Assembly: GCF_007991735.1 (NCBI RefSeq)
Contig: NZ_BJYX01000003.1
Location: 62,001-126,000 of the forward strand
Origin: Terrabacter aerolatus
GTDB taxonomy: Bacteria > Actinomycetota > Actinomycetes > Actinomycetales > Dermatophilaceae
DNA: 64,000 nucleotides
Direction of reading: 5' to 3'
Position 1 is the first letter of the stretch; each line of letters begins with the position of its first letter. The notes beneath the pieces are model-generated. The model was not told where the DNA came from, ran no database searches, and worked only from the letters and a program-made list of their open reading frames with translations. This document shows, piece after piece, positions 38,595 to 63,364 of this stretch. The translations under genes and the position numbers were made by a program.

Positions 38595-39827
38595 TCAGCG
38601 GCGTGCGCGGATGAGCGCCGGGACCTCGAACTCGCCTGGCGCGTCGGCGAGCTCGCGCACCAGGTCGGCGAGCGCGTCGAGCGAACGGCACACGGCGGCA
38701 TACGACCCGTCGAGGCGGATGGGCCGGCACAGGATGCGCGTCCCGGCGTTGCGGATGACGATCTCCGACTCGGGGGCGCGGTCGCTGTTGCAGTGGACGA
38801 GCAGGCCTGTGGGCAGGCCCATGGCGGTCGTGTAGGCCACGAGCTCGAGGTAGTCGCGCGAGGCGACGTAGCCGTCGGCGCCCATGGAGTACTTCGCGTC
38901 GCCGACGAGGACGACGTCGCTGCCGCGGCGCACGACGAGGTCCGGGGCCATGGTGAGCGCGCGCCCCTCATCGAGCCACACGTCCTCGTCACGCTCGATA
39001 CGCATCTCGGGGGCGAGCCGCAGGTCGAGCTCCTGGGCGATCCACCGCTGGAAGAGGTCGTCCATGTCGACCATGAGGCTGTTGGCCTGCTGGTCGCCCG
39101 CCTCGTGGCTCAGCGACATCGCCTGCAGCACGAGGCGACTGAGCCGCATCGCGTCCTCGTAGTGCTCGTTGAGTCGCGTGATCGGCAGTGCCGCAGCGTG
39201 TTTCGTCGCCGGGGTGTCGGCGACACCGTCGAAGCGGCCGAGGACACGCAGGGCCTCCCGCCGCACGTGCGGCGCGAGCTGGGGCCAGCTGAGCATCGCC
39301 TGCAGGGTGCACCGGAAGAGCTGGTTCTCGACGATGTCCGCGGTGAAGTCGTCGAACCGGCACTGGGGCTCGGCCGCGCTCCAGGGACGCCGGGCGAACT
39401 CCTCCACGAGCAGCCGGCCGCGGATGGTGCGCATGCGCTCCTCGCGCGGCACGTAGCCGTGCACGAGACCACGCATCGTCGCCGAGTCGATGAGCCGGAT
39501 CGCGAAGTAGGCGACGCCGTCGATGAGCTCGTCGGTGTCGCTCCACGTCACGTGCTCGTGGTCGAAGGCGTCCGGCGAGACCCCGGCCCCCAGCATGGCG
39601 AAGAAGTTCGTGACGGAGACCTTCGGCATGACCCGGACGACGAGTCCGGGCACGGCCAGCGCACCGACCCAGCTCGTCGCGCCGATCGTCACGACGTCGG
39701 GGTCGGCCGTCGCGTGGATGACGAGCCGCTCCCCCGCCGCCGTGACGAGGGCCGCACGCGTCTCCCGGGTCAGGCGGACCGGCCCCGAGCGTCCGTGCTC
39801 GGGGATGGGGGCGAGCTCGATGGTCAT
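38595..39827 (-). CDS. mcrC: McrC, nuclease subunit of type IV restriction system
   Basis: Protein of 410 residues, the McrBC endonuclease subunit. The N-terminal beta region contains RLVIHATADPDVVTIG and VRVMPKVSVTNFFAML. The C-terminal PD-(D/E)xK nuclease site reads MAPDLVVRRGSDVVLVGDAKYS (Asp, then DAK, near residues 300-322), with the family YELVAYTTAMGLPTGLL-like helix after it (DYLELVAY). It lies 30 bases downstream of mcrB in the usual order. McrC cuts DNA that McrB has recognised as modified. The catalytic residues look intact. Confidence 0.93.
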   Translation of the reverse strand: MTIELAPIPEHGRSGPVRLTRETRAALVTAAGERLVIHATADPDVVTIGATSWVGALAVPGLVVRVMPKVSVTNFFAMLGAGVSPDAFDHEHVTWSDTDELIDGVAYFAIRLIDSATMRGLVHGYVPREERMRTIRGRLLVEEFARRPWSAAEPQCRFDDFTADIVENQLFRCTLQAMLSWPQLAPHVRREALRVLGRFDGVADTPATKHAAALPITRLNEHYEDAMRLSRLVLQAMSLSHEAGDQQANSLMVDMDDLFQRWIAQELDLRLAPEMRIERDEDVWLDEGRALTMAPDLVVRRGSDVVLVGDAKYSMGADGYVASRDYLELVAYTTAMGLPTGLLVHCNSDRAPESEIVIRNAGTRILCRPIRLDGSYAAVCRSLDALADLVRELADAPGEFEVPALIRARR

Positions 39828-39857: not shown

Positions 39858-42674
39858 TCACGGCCTGGTCAGGTCGAACTGACCGTAGCGCGCCTTGACG
39901 TTCTCCCAGCGGAACTGGGCCAGCTCGTGCTCGCGCCCGTACAGCTGGTCCTCGATGAACGGGTAGACGTTGTAGTCCCAGATCCGGCGCAGGGTCGCCT
40001 CGTCGCCGTCGAGCCCGGGGCGCATGAAGTAGCTGTGGCCGATCTGCAGGTGCGGGCCGCGCAGGGCCCGGCGCAGGTCCTCGTTGACCCGGTCGACGAG
40101 CTCGGCGACCCAGACGGGGCCGTCGTTCGCCTCGAGCCACCGGCGCAGCAGGCCCTCCATCGGCCCGTCGTGCGGCATGAAGGGCACGAAGTCGAAACGG
40201 CGTCGCAGGGCGGCGTCGACGAGCGCGATGGAGCGGTCGGCGGTGTTCATCGTGCCGATGAAGTAGAGGTTCGGCGGGAGCTCGAACCCCTCGTCGGGCC
40301 GGTAGCTCGTCTTGACCGAGTGCGAGCGGTACTCGAGGAGGAAGAGGAGCTCACCGAAGACGCGGGGCAGGTTGGCGCGGTTGATCTCGTCGATGATCAT
40401 GATGTGCGGCGTCAGCGGGTCGGCCTCGGCCGCCTCGGCGAGCAGCGCCAGCGGTCCCTTGCGCAGCTCGTAGACCATCTGGCCCTGGTGGTCGATCTGC
40501 GGCCGGAAGCCCTCGAAGAAGTCCTCGTAGCTGCTGCTCGGGTGGAACTGGACGATGTCGCGCTTGGCCGGGTCGGGCTGCAGGGCCTGGGCGAAGCGCT
40601 GCGCGAGGTAGGTCTTGCCGGTCCCGGGCGGGCCGTAGAAGATGACCTGCTTCTTCTCCTCGAGCAGACCCTGGATCTCGCGGAGGAAGTCCTCCTCGAT
40701 GAGCAGCTCCGCGGCGGCCTCGCCGAGGGCGTCGTGGTCGGGCATGAGCGCCTTGTCGGAGCGGCGCATGAGCCAGTAGGCGAGCTGCGCCTGGCCCCAC
40801 GGGTCGTCCGGCAGGAGCGGGTCGAGCGTCTGCTTGAGCAGGGCGTTCGTCTCGACGTGGGTGCGGCCGCGGGACTTGCCGTCCGTCCAGCGCGCGGGGC
40901 CGCCGAGCCGCCCGAGCATGGCGATCTTGCCCGAGTCGCCGCCGAGCGTGAAGAGCGGCAGCCAGTGCTCCGGGTGGGCGATGGCGAAGAGCTTGAGCAC
41001 GACGCTCTCGCCGAAACCCTGGACCGGCACGTCGTCGGAGCCGAGGACGCGGTTGATCCGCTCCTCGTCGCGCCCCTCGCCCCAGAGCAGGTTGCGGACC
41101 ATGACGCGCAGCTCGTCGATGCCGGCGGCGTCGAGGGCGTTGATGCTGCTGATGAGGACGGACTGGCCGCCGATGTCGCCGTAGCCGCGGGTGGAGACGA
41201 TCCGCTTGAAGGTCGGCAGGTCGAAGTCCTCGAGGCCCTCGCGCGAGAGGCAGGCGGCGAAGACGCGGCGCTGCTCCTGGTGCCAGGCGTCGCGCTCGCT
41301 CGGGTAGGGCCGCTCGGTCCTGAAGATCTCGACCTCGGTGTCGAGGTCGACCATGGCGGCGAGCTCGAGGCTGGGGTCGTCGAGCGGGCCCCGCTGGCTC
41401 GACGTCATGAACCGCAGCAGCGGCGTCAGCGCGCGGGCGGTGGTCAGGATCTCGTCGGCGAAGTCGGCGCGCCCGACCGCCTCCTCGCCCTTCCACCAGC
41501 GACCGACGAACGTCTCGCCGCCGGGGTACTCGCGGCCCACGGGCTCGAGCCGGTCGGGGCGGCCGTCCTCGTGGACGCGCAGGAAGGTCAGGCCGCGGGG
41601 CAGGTGCTCCTGGACGATGGTGCCGACCTCGCGGTGCTGCTGGTCGGACTCGCCCTCCCAGCCACCGTGGAGGCCGAACGCGACACCGGACGGCGTGACC
41701 CAGAGCCGGAAGCCGGGGGCACCGGCGCCCCCGACGAGGATCCACGCGGCATACAGGTCGGACCGGTAGGCGGTGTCCTCGCCCGCGTGCTGCTGGAGCG
41801 CGAGCGTGGGGGCCTCGAGGTAGAGGCCGGTCTCGGCGGAGAGCCGCTCGATGAGGCTGTCGGAGATGTGGTCGGCCTCGCCGCGGAGCTGGCGGGCCAG
41901 GTCGGCGGCGCGCTCCTCGCGCCGCGCCTCGCCGTAGCCGGTCGACGAGCGGAAGTCGGCGGCGATCTCGGCCGCCTCGACACACACGTCGAGCGCCCGC
42001 GGGGCGATGCCGACGAAGGCGCCCGACTCCTTGAGGTACCAGAGGATGCGGGCGGCGTACTTCGGGTCGTCGGGTCGCAGGGCGCCACACAGGTCGGCGA
42101 AGGCGACGTAGCGCTCGGCGTGGCTCAGGCCGCGCTCGAGCCACCCGAGCCGCTGGAGCATGTGCGGGGCGTTCTCCCACATGAGCGGCCACTCGCCGCC
42201 GTCGTCGGTCGACCAGAAGAGCGAGAGGACGTATGCCGTGTGGCCCGGTCCCGGGGCGCGGTGCCCGCGGGAGCCGCCGCGGGCGAGGAAGGCCTCCATC
42301 GCCTGGAGCTTGTCAGCGGCGTCCTGCGGGGAGGCAGGCGTCTGGAGGGTGAGCTTGAGCAGACCGACGACCTCGGCGTACTCCTCCTCGGCGCGGCGCA
42401 CGAGGGCGGCGAGCCAGGGGCCGCCGACGGGTCCGAATCCGACGTAGGGACCGTCCTTGCGGGTCCACTGGTTCATCGCCTCCTTGAAGGCGACGAGGTC
42501 GCTGGAGGCGACGAGGTCGGCGAGGATCTCGCGCAGCTCCCCGTTGCGGGCGCCGCGCTCCGAATCGAGCTCGGCGAAGAGGGCCTGCGCGTCCTTGTCC
42601 GCCTCGGCCGCCCGCTCGATGAGGGCGTACTTGGCGCGCCAACGCTTGACGTCGACGGTGTCAGTGCGAGACAT
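39858..42674 (-). CDS. mcrB: McrB-type AAA+ GTPase with very long N-terminal region
   Basis: Motor and recognition subunit of a type IV, modification-dependent restriction system. The C-terminal AAA+ core starts near residue 680: Walker A YGPPGTGKTYLAQRF, HPSSSYEDFFEG, Walker B MIIDEINRANLPRVFGEL, and the McrB signature MNTADRSIALVDAALRRRF. Ahead of it lie about 670 residues against about 200 in E. coli McrB: a helical part (1-290), a beta-rich segment (AAWILVGG, FRLWVTPSGVAFGLHGGW, about 300-400) that may be the modified-base sensor, and a helical domain (FAIAHPEHWLPLFTLGG, near 560). ATG 42674 has AAGGAGC seven bases upstream. Total 938 residues. Confidence 0.92.
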   Translation of the reverse strand: MSRTDTVDVKRWRAKYALIERAAEADKDAQALFAELDSERGARNGELREILADLVASSDLVAFKEAMNQWTRKDGPYVGFGPVGGPWLAALVRRAEEEYAEVVGLLKLTLQTPASPQDAADKLQAMEAFLARGGSRGHRAPGPGHTAYVLSLFWSTDDGGEWPLMWENAPHMLQRLGWLERGLSHAERYVAFADLCGALRPDDPKYAARILWYLKESGAFVGIAPRALDVCVEAAEIAADFRSSTGYGEARREERAADLARQLRGEADHISDSLIERLSAETGLYLEAPTLALQQHAGEDTAYRSDLYAAWILVGGAGAPGFRLWVTPSGVAFGLHGGWEGESDQQHREVGTIVQEHLPRGLTFLRVHEDGRPDRLEPVGREYPGGETFVGRWWKGEEAVGRADFADEILTTARALTPLLRFMTSSQRGPLDDPSLELAAMVDLDTEVEIFRTERPYPSERDAWHQEQRRVFAACLSREGLEDFDLPTFKRIVSTRGYGDIGGQSVLISSINALDAAGIDELRVMVRNLLWGEGRDEERINRVLGSDDVPVQGFGESVVLKLFAIAHPEHWLPLFTLGGDSGKIAMLGRLGGPARWTDGKSRGRTHVETNALLKQTLDPLLPDDPWGQAQLAYWLMRRSDKALMPDHDALGEAAAELLIEEDFLREIQGLLEEKKQVIFYGPPGTGKTYLAQRFAQALQPDPAKRDIVQFHPSSSYEDFFEGFRPQIDHQGQMVYELRKGPLALLAEAAEADPLTPHIMIIDEINRANLPRVFGELLFLLEYRSHSVKTSYRPDEGFELPPNLYFIGTMNTADRSIALVDAALRRRFDFVPFMPHDGPMEGLLRRWLEANDGPVWVAELVDRVNEDLRRALRGPHLQIGHSYFMRPGLDGDEATLRRIWDYNVYPFIEDQLYGREHELAQFRWENVKARYGQFDLTRP

Positions 42675-43021
42675 GAGGCTCCTTGCACGCCCACTTCTAG
42701 GACGCATAGCTACTGCGCGCGTGGAGGTGCGTGCAGGACCGCGAGAAGGTTACCTGCCAGTCGCCCGTGCTTCGAAACTCGCGGGGTGTCGTCGTCGGTC
42801 CCCAGGCATCGCAGCGTCGAACGGCCCCTGACGGCAGCGAGAGGCCTCCATTCTTACCCGACCGGGTGCGTGGCTGGCGCGCGGGGGCCTGTGGATGACC
42901 GCCTGCGCCCGGGATGCGGGAGCGTGAGGATGGTCGTAGGTTGCCGTGCAGGAACGAGGGCCCCGAACTGCCCTCCCGAGCACGCAACAGCACGATGATC
43001 GACGATCGACAGGGGACGCCG
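42675..43021. other. 347-bp divergent intergenic region, mcrB/lipoprotein
   Basis: No gene is supported here. The region must hold both promoters. TAGCTATGCG on the minus strand just upstream of the mcrB ribosome site is the only AT-rich element near mcrB. No operator repeats are obvious. Confidence 0.45.
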
Positions 43022-43651
43022 ATGACCGCCGCCGTACGCCAGCACCGACACCGCACGCTCTTGCCGTATGCCGCCGCCGGCCTCGCCGCCGCGCTGCTCG
43101 GGGCCTGCACCAGCGGGGACCCCGGGACGACGGTCACGACCGCTCCCCCGGCCGCATCGACGACGACCTCCACGTCGGCGGCCCCTTCGACGACGTCAAC
43201 TGCTCCCAGCCCCACGACGTCCGTCGACCCCGTCTTGGCCCGAATCCCCGACGCCGCCCGCGCAAGAACAGCTGCGGGAGCCCAGGCCTTCGCAAGATTC
43301 TTTATTGAGTCCCTGAATGCTGGCGCGTCCAAGCCCGACTCCAGAGTGCTCGCTGGCCTCTTCGCTCCAAGCTGCGAGACATGTCAGGCGATGTACAAAT
43401 CACTGAAGATTCTTGAGACCAAGAAGCAGCGCCACACCGGCGACTCGATCCGGGTTAGCGCGACAAGCTCCCTAACCTTCTCGACGTCGGCAGCTCAAGT
43501 GCTTATCGATGTTGAGCAGAAGTCCGTGGATGTGGTGGACTCGAAAGGTGCCACTGTGAGGCGAACAGCTGATGGGCCAGGAACTTTCGTGATGTCCATA
43601 TCGCTCAACGGCGGACACTGGATAGCAACCAAGCTGCAGACAGCATCATGA
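43022..43651 (+). CDS. DUF6318-like lipoprotein, mosaic GC content
   Basis: Lipoprotein of 209 residues: signal peptide with lipobox LLGAC near residue 28, then a Thr/Ser/Pro-rich linker of about 40 residues, then a globular domain with FARFFIESLNAG, LFAPSCETCQAMY (CxxC) and GGHWIATKLQ, resembling the actinobacterial DUF6318 family. From about 43285 codon use changes abruptly from GC-rich to mixed (TTT ATT GAG, AAG ATT CTT), so only the 5' third matches the genome. ATG 43022 has AGGGGA upstream. The stop overlaps the next gene (ATGA). The function is unknown; surface exposure is likely. Confidence 0.75.
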   Translation: MTAAVRQHRHRTLLPYAAAGLAAALLGACTSGDPGTTVTTAPPAASTTTSTSAAPSTTSTAPSPTTSVDPVLARIPDAARARTAAGAQAFARFFIESLNAGASKPDSRVLAGLFAPSCETCQAMYKSLKILETKKQRHTGDSIRVSATSSLTFSTSAAQVLIDVEQKSVDVVDSKGATVRRTADGPGTFVMSISLNGGHWIATKLQTAS

Positions 43652-44150
43652 TGCGGGCTGCGTGCGCCCTCCTGGCGGCCTTGGCTTTAAGCGTGGTCGC
43701 GGCGCCGACATATGCCTTGGGGAGTGACCCCTGCGATGACGCTTGGGTCGACTGCGGAACCACCGGCGACGGCGCCTTCGCTGACCTGCTGCCGCGAGAC
43801 AAAGTAAGGGCGTTGCCAAAATATCCAGGCGACTCGGGCGGCGTCGTGATCGTAGATCGAGATAAGCATCTGCCTATTTACGAATACAGGTCTCTCGCAG
43901 ACTGCTATAACGCAAAGCCGGACACTGGCACCGAAGCGGTCACCTGCACGGGCGCCCTGCGTTCCTGTCCAACTGGAGAGGTGGGACCTCGTCTGAGGAT
44001 TTGGAGAAGGACACTTCTCGACGCCAAAGTTGTCGGTCCGTGGACTCTGATTGGTCTGACATGTGCGGCCGATGTTGCGCCTGGGGCTCGGCCGACGTTG
44101 ACGATGGCTGATCTGAAGGCTGCGTTCCTGCGGACTCCCTGGTCCAAGCC
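43285..44150. other. Low-GC mosaic segment across two genes
   Basis: About 865 bases with clearly lower GC and non-native codons, beginning inside the lipoprotein gene and ending inside the next one, while both flanks are native. Reading frames continue through both joins. This is what homologous recombination at conserved ends with a foreign allele would leave. Boundaries are judged by eye. Confidence 0.65.
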
Positions 44151-44556
44151 GCAGATCTCGAGCCAGCCCGCCGGGAACACGACGCTCGTGAACCTGCGCA
44201 CCTTCTACGAAGTCAACTGGTCGACGGCGGGATTCCAGCCCGGCGAGGTCGACCGATCCGTGCTGCGCGGCATCCCGGTCCAGATCCGTCCGAAGCTGGT
44301 CGGCTTCACCTACCTCTTCGGCGACGGCTCGAGCGTGGGGCCCACCTCCTCGACCGGCGGCGTCTACCCCGACGGTGACATCACCCACGTCTACAAGACC
44401 TCGGGCCGGTACCCGGTGCGGGTCGACACGACGTTCGGGGCGGACTTCAGCATCGACGGGTCGACGTGGGACGAGATTCCGTCGACGGTCACCGTGCCGG
44501 GGCCCTCGACCACCGTGACCGTCCGCGAGGCGAAGGGCGTCCTCGTCAACCACTGA
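43648..44556 (+). CDS. Exported protein with PKD-like C-terminus, mosaic GC content
   Basis: Secreted protein of 302 residues with an N-terminal signal peptide (MRAACALLAALALSVVAAPTYA) and a cysteine-rich N-domain (DPCDDAWVDCG, CYNAKPD, VTCTGALRSC, LTCAADV). The C-domain resembles a PKD/immunoglobulin fold (YLFGDGSSVGPTSS, ITHVYKTSGRYPVRVDTTF). The first two thirds (to about 44150) are markedly AT-richer than the rest, including a TTA leucine codon at 43687-43689, whereas the C-domain is typical GC-rich DNA. Translationally coupled to the lipoprotein. Partner surface proteins are likely; the function is unknown. Confidence 0.72.
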   Translation: MMRAACALLAALALSVVAAPTYALGSDPCDDAWVDCGTTGDGAFADLLPRDKVRALPKYPGDSGGVVIVDRDKHLPIYEYRSLADCYNAKPDTGTEAVTCTGALRSCPTGEVGPRLRIWRRTLLDAKVVGPWTLIGLTCAADVAPGARPTLTMADLKAAFLRTPWSKPQISSQPAGNTTLVNLRTFYEVNWSTAGFQPGEVDRSVLRGIPVQIRPKLVGFTYLFGDGSSVGPTSSTGGVYPDGDITHVYKTSGRYPVRVDTTFGADFSIDGSTWDEIPSTVTVPGPSTTVTVREAKGVLVNH

Positions 44557-61195: not shown

Positions 61196-61633
61196 TCAGG
61201 ACGCGGCCGACAGCGCGTCAGGGAGCCGGAAGACCCCGTCGCCGGTCGCGAGGTAGAACCCGAGCAGGCCGACGTCGTGGGCAGCACACCGCGCGATCGC
61301 CAGCTCGTGCCAGGCCCGGTCCACGTCGGTCGGCGCCGTCCCGTGCGCTCGCCCGCGACCGATGAGGAGCGAGCCGTCGTCGTCGGCCACGAGCGGGAGC
61401 AGCAGGTCGAGCAGCCTGACGAAGTCGCCGGCCGCTGCGTCCGGCGGTACGTCGTGGAGAACGATCGGCTGGACGCCGCGGTCCTCGGCATCACAGATCA
61501 TCACCCCCACGCAGCCGGCCGCGCGGTCGGAGTCGCTCAGGATCAGGTCGATGACGTCGGCGGCAACACGTCGGTCGGTCAGGGGAATCTCGCTGGCCCG
61601 TGCGGGCAGGTCTTCGAAGGTCATGGCTGCCAT
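61196..61633 (-). CDS. Small protein resembling the DUF4192 N-terminal fold, copy 2
   Basis: Protein of 145 residues, paralogous to the one at 45639-46073 (shared MTFEDLP-like start, PLTD, DLIL, QPIVLHDVPPDAA, DDDGSLLIGRG, PTDVDRAWHELA). The second ATG at 61624 (MTFEDLP) matches the paralogue's N-terminus; 61633 has a slightly better purine-rich leader. It lies 66 bases downstream of the NERD helicase on the same strand and may be cotranscribed with it. Function unknown. Confidence 0.66.
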   Translation of the reverse strand: MAAMTFEDLPARASEIPLTDRRVAADVIDLILSDSDRAAGCVGVMICDAEDRGVQPIVLHDVPPDAAAGDFVRLLDLLLPLVADDDGSLLIGRGRAHGTAPTDVDRAWHELAIARCAAHDVGLLGFYLATGDGVFRLPDALSAAS

Positions 61634-61699
61634 GCTCGTCGTCCGCACCACCGCCCTGCCGACGTTGTCCCCAGCCCCCCGCGGTGGCGCGAGACCGGG

Positions 61700-63364
61700 T
61701 CAGCGGATGCCGAGCCGGTGCGCGACCTGGTCGCCACCGATCTCACGGATGAACTGGGGGTCGCCGACCACGACGAGCTCGTCCGTGGCACGGGACATGC
61801 CGACGTAGAGCATCTCCCGAGCCCGGTCGCTGGTCCTGCCATTGACGCAGAGGACGACGGCCCGACGCTCGAGACCCTTGCACCCGAGGACGTGACCGTA
61901 GAAGACGTCGTCCTCGTCCCAGAAGGAACGCCAGTAGCCGACCTGACCCAGTGACTCCTGGCGCTCCACCTGGGCCGGATGCCGTGAACCCATGGTGAGC
62001 AGTGCCACGTGCTGCGGCAGCCAGCCCTCCTCGAGCAACAGGTCGACCTGGTCGTCGGAGGTGCTGATCGCGCCTTCACGGTCGCAGGGCACGAAACGGA
62101 CGTCGGCGCCCGCTGCCCCGCGGAGGTGCATCCTCATCGGCGCGAGCGGCCCGAACGCGCGGGCGATCTGCTGGGTGTTGCGCAGGTTGTGGTCGAGCAC
62201 GAGTGGGACGAGCGGCACTGGTGGCTGGCCGAAGCGGGCGAAGATCCGCTGGTTCTCGTCGGAGTAGACGTAGAGACCGCCGTCGTCCTCGTCGCGCAGG
62301 GCCTTCATGAGCGGGTACCACCAGTGGTCGGCGAAGTCCTGGGCCTCGTCGACGATCACCGCGTCGAACTTCTTGCCATCGGGCAGGCTCGCGGCGATCT
62401 CGGTCATCCGGGTCGCGAGGTCCCGCTCCCAGAACTCGGCGTCGTTGCGGTCGTGCGAGGCCGTGTCGATGCCCCACGCGTTGGCGAGGTCCTCGAAGGA
62501 GCCCACGAACGCCGGGCGGTGGTGGCGCGGCACCCCGGCGAGCTGTCGCCGGAAGTACTGCGAGAGCCCGATCGAGTAGCAGACGAGGGCCACCCGCTGC
62601 GACCTGCGCTCTCCCTGCCCGCGCGTCAGGTCCTTGGCCTGGGTGAGGGCGAGAATCGTCTTGCCACTGCCGGCTCCGCCGCGGATCTCCATCCGCCGGA
62701 TGAGCCGGGTCACCGAGAGAAGGGCGGCCTGCTCCTGCGTCAGGCGGTCCGCGACGGCCTCGCGGTCCTCGGCCTCGGCAGCCACGTCGTGGACGGGGAG
62801 ACTGCGCCCCGACAGGATCTCGACGACGAGGTCGAGGTCGTCCTCGTCCGGGCGACGACATGCGGTCTCCTGCCGAGCCACGACGTCCCGCAGCCGCTCG
62901 GCGAGCTGGTCGAGGTCGCTCCGACCCGAGATGGTCCACCGAGGACAGTCCGGGGTGGCGAAGTCGTCCGCAACGTCGCTGAACGGCAGGACGATCGCAT
63001 GACCCCACCGGATGCGACGACGCGACGAGTCTCGCCACCGGGGGTCACGCTCGACGTACTCACGCAGGGCGTACTTGCCGTCGCGCGCCTGGTCGACGGG
63101 GTGGATGAGGTTGTCCCGCCGGTTCCCCTGGCGCCATCGTCCCTGCTCGTCGATCCAGACCGACCCGCCCTTGACCTCGACGACAACGACGCCCTCGCCG
63201 GGCATGAGCACGACGAGGTCGAGCTCATGGTCCTTCTTCGCGGTCGTCAGCCGCTGGTTGGCCAGCACGACCCAGTCGGCGTCCTTCTGCTGCCGCAGCA
63301 GGTCCCAGACGACCCGCTCCGACTCGTGCGCGAACCGCGGCGTCTCCCCCGGGACCCTGACCAT
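61700..63364 (-). CDS. NERD nuclease-domain SF1 helicase
   Basis: Protein of 554 residues. The N-terminal NERD domain (residues about 10-130) has the PD-(D/E)xK-like core DHELDLVVLMPGEGVVVVEVKGG. The helicase follows: Walker A RGGAGSGKTILALTQA near residue 228, VIVDEAQDFADHWWYPLM near 340, YSDENQRIFARFG, DHNLRNTQQIA, CKGLERRAVVLC and MLYVGMSRATDELVV. The order nuclease-helicase resembles phage-defence and repair enzymes of the NERD-UvrD type. ATG at 63364. A hairpin lies upstream, so it starts its own unit. Confidence 0.9.
   Translation of the reverse strand: MVRVPGETPRFAHESERVVWDLLRQQKDADWVVLANQRLTTAKKDHELDLVVLMPGEGVVVVEVKGGSVWIDEQGRWRQGNRRDNLIHPVDQARDGKYALREYVERDPRWRDSSRRRIRWGHAIVLPFSDVADDFATPDCPRWTISGRSDLDQLAERLRDVVARQETACRRPDEDDLDLVVEILSGRSLPVHDVAAEAEDREAVADRLTQEQAALLSVTRLIRRMEIRGGAGSGKTILALTQAKDLTRGQGERRSQRVALVCYSIGLSQYFRRQLAGVPRHHRPAFVGSFEDLANAWGIDTASHDRNDAEFWERDLATRMTEIAASLPDGKKFDAVIVDEAQDFADHWWYPLMKALRDEDDGGLYVYSDENQRIFARFGQPPVPLVPLVLDHNLRNTQQIARAFGPLAPMRMHLRGAAGADVRFVPCDREGAISTSDDQVDLLLEEGWLPQHVALLTMGSRHPAQVERQESLGQVGYWRSFWDEDDVFYGHVLGCKGLERRAVVLCVNGRTSDRAREMLYVGMSRATDELVVVGDPQFIREIGGDQVAHRLGIR

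What the first reader, a model, noticed from the sequence alone, without database searches (positions are those of the whole stretch)
43285..44150. Low-GC mosaic block exchanged inside two overlapping surface-protein genes, next to McrBC
Composition changes abruptly within the lipoprotein gene and changes back within its partner, with frames preserved and one TTA codon. The conserved ends and foreign middle fit allele replacement of exposed domains, as for phage receptors or antigens. It sits across from a restriction system, so a phage-driven diversification hot spot is plausible. The cysteine-rich part of the second protein and the CxxC part of the first lie in the exchanged block.
Basis: partly seen in the sequence, partly recalled or inferred. 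Interest (0 to 1): 0.58.

Follow-up and report, generated by a model that had tools for sequence, protein, structure and literature searches.

The report
Swapped low-GC block in surface-protein pair
Two neighbouring genes for secreted cell-surface proteins share one stretch of unusually AT-rich, highly variable DNA that related soil actinomycetes appear to have exchanged as ready-made alleles, some of them closer to another genus's than to those of their own genus, while the DNA on both sides stays much the same.

Summary
GC3 (GC at third codon positions) falls from 0.88 to 0.63 at 43262 and returns to 0.96 at 44137. The genes are a DUF6318 lipoprotein (NTF2-like fold) and a secreted Cys-rich/PKD protein in a Terrabacter genome. 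Amino-acid bias is excluded: fourfold sites are AT-richer in the block at every level of residue conservation. The block is exchanged: its tree conflicts with the McrB flank (AU 3e-48), and Terrabacter monophyly is rejected for its lipoprotein part (AU 6e-7) but not for the PKD end. Two of five Terrabacter allele classes are nearest to another genus. McrB is conserved and near the pair in only 10 of 94 fetched loci, so a McrBC hot spot is not supported. Best reading: ancient allele classes of a two-protein envelope module, swapped through conserved anchors. Homologous recombination as route, and the selecting agent (phage adsorption, recognition), are inferred.

The parts
43262..44137 (+). low-GC3, hypervariable block straddling the two genes (GC3 change points)
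   Evidence: codon-identity change points against six congeners lie at 44083-44140 on the right; on the left at 43259-43310 in three, and at 43082, the edge of the search, in the other three
43022..43651 (+). DUF6318 family lipoprotein gene (209 aa; 'lip')
   Evidence: PF19843 32.4 bits against a cut-off of 23.8; lipobox-like LGAC with C29 nearly invariant
43022..43108 (+). left anchor: signal peptide to lipobox Cys29, similar among congeners
   Evidence: the lip 1-75 alignment does not reject the mcrB tree (AU 0.19) but is too short to reject the block tree either (AU 0.08)
43112..43258 (+). Ser/Thr/Pro-rich linker leading into the domain
   Evidence: low pLDDT
43259..43648 (+). NTF2-like domain of the lipoprotein (aa 80-209), variable apart from G86, A87, F90, C118, C121, W200 and a few more
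   Evidence: mean pLDDT 90 or more in every 10-residue block from residue 71; best Z 13.6, rmsd 3.0, 126 aligned
43373..43384 (+). CxxC (C118, C121) of the lipoprotein, conserved
43648..43651 (+). ATGA overlap of stop and start, translational coupling inferred
43648..44556 (+). secreted Cys-rich/PKD partner gene (302 aa; 'pkd')
43687..43689 (+). the single TTA codon, in the partner's signal peptide region
   Evidence: TTA occurs in the block of 39 of 95 pairs (5 of 8 Terrabacter) and in the PKD end of 2 of 95
43720..44097 (+). Cys-rich N-terminal domain of the partner (aa 25-150), variable apart from a Cys/Trp/Gly skeleton
44128..44535 (+). right anchor: PKD domain of the partner (aa 161-296), conserved and high GC3
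   Evidence: Z 9.6, rmsd 1.9, 87 aligned to ColG PKD
39858..42707 (-). McrB-like AAA protein, conserved left flank
38595..39827 (-). McrC (PF10117)

Best explanation
The pair is a two-gene envelope module: a DUF6318 lipoprotein with an NTF2-like domain, followed in the same operon by a secreted protein with a Cys-rich domain and a PKD domain. The facing halves (NTF2-like domain, gene junction, signal peptide, Cys-rich domain) are carried in one roughly 0.85-kb low-GC block. It exists as several ancient allele classes, some of which occur in more than one genus, and these are moved between lineages by homologous recombination in the conserved outer anchors (5' end of the lipoprotein gene with upstream DNA, and the PKD domain), often as a whole block and sometimes by halves. 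SHOWN: conserved anchors, hypervariable block, incongruent trees, allele classes that cross genera (two of five Terrabacter classes), excess synonymous divergence, and low GC3 that recurs across the class and does not depend on amino-acid conservation. INFERRED: that homologous recombination is the route; that negative-frequency-dependent selection on an exposed surface keeps the classes, most likely phage adsorption and less likely cell-cell recognition; and that the two proteins touch each other.
For: The pair is intact beside mcrB in 8 of 9 Terrabacter genomes; the ninth is cut by a contig end inside lip. pN/pS (11 of 28 pairs computed), G000-G005: mcrB 0.01/0.23, lip 83-209 0.51/0.84, pkd 1-146 0.38/0.72, pkd 181-302 0.06/0.41, tex 0.03/0.29. 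For G008-G003, which share a class, block pS is 0.50-0.56 against 0.09-0.19 in mcrB, ant2, amid and tex and 0.25 in pkd 181-302. Over the 11 pairs block pS is about 1.4 to 7 times that of the flanking genes. The block alignment rejects the mcrB tree (dlnL 267, AU 3e-48) and mcrB rejects the block tree (dlnL 116, AU 2e-12); lip 1-75 does not reject the mcrB tree. The lipoprotein domain of G008/G003 is 58-60% identical to G088 of another genus but at most 43% to Terrabacter of other classes; G005/G004 match G090 of a third genus at 55-56% against at most 42%. Terrabacter monophyly: lip dlnL 74, AU 5.6e-7; pkd N part dlnL 23, AU 0.021; PKD end not rejected. In 195 same-genus pairs of 11 genera the PKD end is more conserved than the pkd N part in 195 and than the lipoprotein domain in 188. 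No second lip copy in the genome at E 0.001 or better, one pkd.
Against: No within-species sample was available, so balancing selection itself is untested. Three of five Terrabacter classes ({G000,G006}, G007, G001) have no outside relative above 42% in the lipoprotein domain, so their spread across genera is not shown. The PKD-end alignment also rejects the mcrB tree by AU (0.0285) though not by SH (0.25), so the right anchor is not fully clonal; the lip 1-75 alignment cannot reject the block tree (AU 0.08), so it is weak support for the left anchor. The two halves are not always inherited together: absent correlation in g69 (partial r 0.05, p 0.33; e.g. G145-G154 lip 64%, pkd N 42%), and in Terrabacter G007 has a pkd N part 77-79% like G005/G004 but a lipoprotein domain only 35-37% like theirs. 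The left break is not sharp: three of six congeners put it at the edge of the search. Synonymous sites in the block are near saturation, so positive selection cannot be measured.
Confidence: 0.62

Rival explanations
1. No exchange: the block is a tolerant, fast-mutating region (relaxed constraint or local hypermutation with AT bias) that diverged in place in each lineage.
For: pS and AT content are both raised in the block. In the window GC3 falls with pN across genes (rho -0.57, -0.51 in the cleaned set), so speed of change and low GC go together.
Against: In-place divergence does not give G000 and G006 a 72% identical domain while each is 32-38% identical to the remaining congeners, against the flank tree, nor alleles nearer to other genera. 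Fixed Cys/Trp/Gly skeleton residues show constraint.
Confidence: 0.1
2. A recent import from a low-GC donor into this genome, as the reader first pictured.
For: Abrupt composition change at both ends.
Against: Block GC is below the flank mean in 8 of 8 Terrabacter and 87 of 87 other pairs and in 12 of 12 pairs from outside the family. No pkd relative was found in 72,556 plasmid records or, with a single peptide pattern, in viral contigs; the one 'phage' hit is a bacterial-looking contig.
Confidence: 0.04
3. A polymorphic toxin or recognition system: the exchanged halves are a cognate effector and immunity or receptor pair, like Rhs or MafB tips.
For: GC-rich core with AT-rich exchangeable part, as described for rhs (PMC2935791, passages); the low-GC unit spans two genes; both parts tend to be co-inherited in three genera.
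Against: The variable part of the second protein is N-terminal. There is no displaced tip or second copy in this genome, no toxin family among the Pfam hits, and the halves are uncoupled in g69 and partly in Terrabacter.
Confidence: 0.08
4. Low GC is kept for a DNA-level reason, such as silencing by an AT-binding nucleoid protein (Lsr2 type; recalled), and variability follows from weak expression.
For: Persistence of low GC3 across the class, independent of residue conservation; TTA codons are more frequent in the block (39 of 95 pairs against 2 of 95 in the PKD end).
Against: Absolute GC is still about 60%. It does not explain trans-genus alleles. Silencer binding was not tested.
Confidence: 0.1

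Closest known systems
Rhs / MafB C-terminal tip displacement (PMC2935791, passages read)
   Same: GC-rich conserved core joined to an AT-rich, exchangeable, hypervariable part; exchange by recombination in the conserved part
   Different: Here the exchanged block lies between two anchors and spans the junction of two genes; this genome has no displaced silent tips, and the variable part of the second protein is N-terminal
Mosaic surface antigens of naturally recombining bacteria such as porins, transferrin-binding proteins or OspC (recalled, no call)
   Same: Divergent allele classes with the same flanks, exchanged by homologous recombination
   Different: Here in soil actinomycetes, across genera, in a two-gene unit, with a composition step
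Trans-species polymorphism under balancing selection (MHC, fungal incompatibility genes; titles and abstract starts seen in the listing)
   Same: Allele classes cross species, here genus, boundaries
   Different: Population data are lacking here, and transfer between genera is as likely as common ancestry of the alleles
DUF6318 (PF19843)
   Same: Sequence family of the lipoprotein

Membership tests
DUF6318 (PF19843) | score over Pfam's cut-off | tested here: met
   32.4 bits against 23.8
DUF6318 (PF19843) | lipoprotein signal with conserved Cys | tested here: met
   LGAC at Cys29, nearly invariant in 13 sequences; by sequence only
NTF2-like superfamily | fold of the domain | tested here: met
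   predicted model with high pLDDT in the domain; best Z 13.6 over 126 residues, many NTF2-like rows at Z 10 or more
PKD domain | Pfam cut-off by sequence | tested here: not met
   PF00801 21.0 bits against 23.5
PKD domain | fold | tested here: met
   predicted model; ColG PKD Z 9.6, rmsd 1.9, 87 aligned
Rhs / polymorphic toxin | displaced silent tips or extra copies | tested here: not met
   one lip in this genome at E 0.001 or better; some other genomes do have extra lip genes at the locus
Rhs / polymorphic toxin | recognisable toxin domain in the variable part | tested here: inconclusive
   no Pfam toxin hit
Defence-island hot spot with McrBC | association across relatives and variable flanks | tested here: not met
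   mcrB within the fetched flanks in 10 of 94 loci and 94-97% identical in congeners
Trans-species balanced polymorphism | allele classes shared across lineages | tested here: met
   Terrabacter monophyly rejected for the lipoprotein domain; shown for two of five classes
Trans-species balanced polymorphism | several classes within one population | not testable with these tools
   one genome per species held

The most novel reading that the evidence does not exclude
The GC3 step inside single genes marks where homologous strand exchange stops. In the anchors, exchange between similar sequences keeps GC3 near 0.92 by GC-biased gene conversion. In the block, alleles are too different to pair, conversion cannot act, and GC3 drifts toward the AT-biased mutational balance at about 0.67, class-wide. 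If so, this operon is a natural control experiment for what keeps actinomycete genomes GC-rich, with gene, strand and expression held nearly constant.
Probability: 0.22. Interest if true: 0.82.

Novelty: new variant of a known kind. Interest (0 to 1): 0.62.

Why it matters
It gives an uncharacterised actinomycete lipoprotein family a predicted structure, a regular gene partner and an evolutionary behaviour; the term DUF6318 occurs in 0 papers of the searched library. It offers a candidate surface determinant of strain identity or phage sensitivity in soil actinomycetes. It also gives a within-gene contrast of conserved GC-rich and hypervariable GC-poor halves. That makes rival explanations of high genomic GC (biased gene conversion, Lassalle et al. 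2015, PMC4450053, abstract and section list read; codon selection; mutation) directly comparable.

Tried and rejected
Akashi-type codon accuracy (name recalled): rejected as the main cause, because at equal column conservation fourfold GC is 0.64-0.78 in the block (one bin of 19 codons at 0.58) and 0.85-0.93 in the PKD end; the linker before the block is in between, 0.79-0.84. Simple amino-acid bias: rejected by the same test. Intragenomic cassette switching: one lip copy only and no direct repeat longer than 23 bases around the pair. Mobile carriers: no pkd relative in plasmids or, with one peptide pattern, in viral contigs; one 'phage' record (MT835671.1) is 72% GC and its large open frames look chromosomal. 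Promoters and terminators: 0 promoter-like sites; 3 overlapping terminator-like sites at one place, shuffles 1.0 +- 1.2. Conserved neighbours: apart from lip and pkd no gene family recurs in more than 7 genus labels within the fetched flanks (warnings cut part of that output). A fixed sequence motif for splitting pkd kept only 32 pairs and was replaced by profile alignment for all 95. The GC3-pN trend is weaker once doubtful frames are removed: it predicts 0.76-0.80 for the block, against 0.63-0.64 observed, whereas the uncleaned fit predicted 0.55-0.66; most of this is extrapolation, since the other genes reach a pN of only 0.25 (cleaned) or 0.40 (uncleaned). The partial correlation for genus g71 failed (not a number). 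Locus L038 (G002, cut) was left out of the family counts.

Full report
WHERE AND WHAT. The window lies in a Terrabacter genome: congeners G006 and G005 have contig lengths equal to the records of Terrabacter sp. Root181 and T. tumescens JCM 1365. The two genes are a DUF6318 lipoprotein (43022-43651; PF19843 over cut-off) and a secreted protein (43648-44556) with a weak PKD match. They overlap by four bases.

OBSERVATION. In a control over the window, 44 open frames with pN/pS support were compared with five congeners. Of these, 33 passed a filter on pN/pS, number of congeners and aligned length; the lipoprotein gene, with pN/pS above 0.6, did not. With pkd set aside, GC3 in the other 32 correlates with pN (rho -0.57). 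In a set cleaned of doubtful frames (30 genes) the correlation is -0.51, and the block lies below the extrapolated trend.

CONGENERS. The 8 Terrabacter genomes with an uncut locus all carry the pair beside mcrB; G002 is cut by a contig end inside lip. McrB is 94-97% identical. In 30-codon windows the middle of the pair is about 32-62% identical in DNA to congeners of other classes and 52-78% to G006, while the PKD end is 72-93%. Classes by the lipoprotein domain are {G000,G006}, {G004,G005}, {G003,G008}, G007 and G001. The mcrB tree instead puts G006 with G003/G007/G008 and G000 beside G005. Each alignment rejects the other's tree. The 5' end of the lipoprotein gene does not reject the mcrB tree (AU 0.19), but it is short and does not reject the block tree either (AU 0.08). 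The PKD end rejects the mcrB tree weakly (AU 0.0285; SH 0.25). Even inside a class, synonymous divergence in the block (0.50-0.56 for G008-G003) exceeds that of mcrB, ant2, amid and tex (0.09-0.19) (11 of 28 pairs computed, uncorrected proportions).

ACROSS GENERA. A pkd relative is found in 159 of 186 genomes of the family. I examined 94 loci with 95 pairs: the window, 13 loci chosen by lip hits and 80 chosen by hand among the pkd hits listed. A DUF6318-type gene lies directly upstream of pkd in all 95, including the 81 pairs of the loci chosen by pkd. In the class, DUF6318 matches (E 0.001 or better) are in 28 of 148 genomes sampled, 27 over the curated cut-off, and in 0 of 14 control genomes. 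Of 20 short loci fetched there, 15 also have pkd next door; 3 of these are in the same family, so 12 of 17 outside it. Within genera, 195 of 195 species pairs have a more conserved PKD end than pkd N part, and 188 of 195 than lipoprotein domain. The lipoprotein domain of G003/G008 is nearer to genus g56, and that of G004/G005 nearer to G090, than to Terrabacter of other classes; the other three classes show no such clear outside relative. Monophyly of Terrabacter is rejected for the lipoprotein domain (AU 5.6e-7) and the pkd N part (AU 0.021), not for the PKD end. G090's contig has the same length as a record of Intrasporangium chromatireducens.

COMPOSITION. Block GC is below the flank mean in 95 of 95 pairs, though only barely in a few (G175, both pairs of G188), and below every same-size flank window in 8 of 8 Terrabacter and 64 of 87 others. 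Lipoprotein-domain GC3 is below PKD-end GC3 in 94 of 95, and pkd-N GC3 in 86 of 95. By genus label (39, of which two are one genus counted apart) the counts are 39 and 37. In 12 pairs from outside the family all three differences hold. At fourfold sites the step is regional: even columns with under 30% conservation in the PKD end have GC3 near 0.90, while columns with over 80% conservation in the block have 0.74-0.78. So neither amino-acid bias nor residue-wise codon selection explains it. Block GC follows host GC only loosely (rho 0.44), which fits a partly ameliorated, long-circulating pool.

STRUCTURE. The lipoprotein domain (80-209) is predicted with high confidence as an NTF2-like fold. 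The partner's 161-296 is a PKD domain by structure; its Cys-rich N part has moderate confidence and was not searched alone. The residues that rarely change in the block (CxxC, four partner cysteines, W, G) look like the skeleton.

MECHANISM AND LIMITS. The simplest account is exchange of ancient alleles by homologous recombination in the anchors, kept diverse by frequency-dependent selection on a surface. The exchange is well supported; the route and the selective agent are inference. McrB is a conserved neighbour in Terrabacter and one further genus label (g56) only, within the fetched flanks. The two halves tend to be co-inherited in Terrabacter (partial r 0.73, p 0.001), g2 (0.66) and g18 (0.55) but not in g69 (0.05), and G007 in Terrabacter combines a pkd N part like G004/G005 with a different lipoprotein domain. 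So matching may matter in some lineages and is not strict.

LITERATURE. DUF6318 occurs in 0 papers of the library; Intrasporangiaceae with PKD domain in 0. Rhs (PMC2935791, passages) is the nearest described GC-mosaic exchange that I saw. PMC4450053 (abstract and section list) states the gene-conversion hypothesis used in the novel reading. Other results were seen as search listings only.

Noticed in passing
L214 (MT835671.1): Record labelled 'Bacteriophage sp.' (unverified) carries the lip-pkd pair in a 72% GC contig whose large open frames look like bacterial chromosome; probably a mislabelled contig.
   Followed up: partly
L162, L171, L150, L043: Some genomes have extra DUF6318 genes at the locus (lip-pkd-lip in G032 and G122, two pairs in G188, a second lip in G024); possible spare alleles.
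   Followed up: no
L211 (G064): Both genes of the pair appear broken into separate frames; decay or sequencing error.
   Followed up: no
L109 and other loci, about 1.7 kb upstream of pkd: A gene whose start resembles NrdR (recalled motif) recurs on the opposite strand in 13 loci of 7 genus labels; a second chromosomal address of the pair.
   Followed up: no
39858-42707: The McrB-like protein has some 650 residues before its AAA domain, matches NF008457 far below its cut-off, and is strongly conserved in the genus.
   Followed up: no
61260-61805: Open frame close to G006 (pN 0.16) but far from G003/G005/G008 (pN 0.48-0.54), no Pfam hit; perhaps a second exchanged gene or a false orthologue.
   Followed up: no
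window genes: Across window genes GC3 falls as amino-acid divergence rises (rho about -0.5), hinting at a general link between speed of change and AT content.
   Followed up: partly
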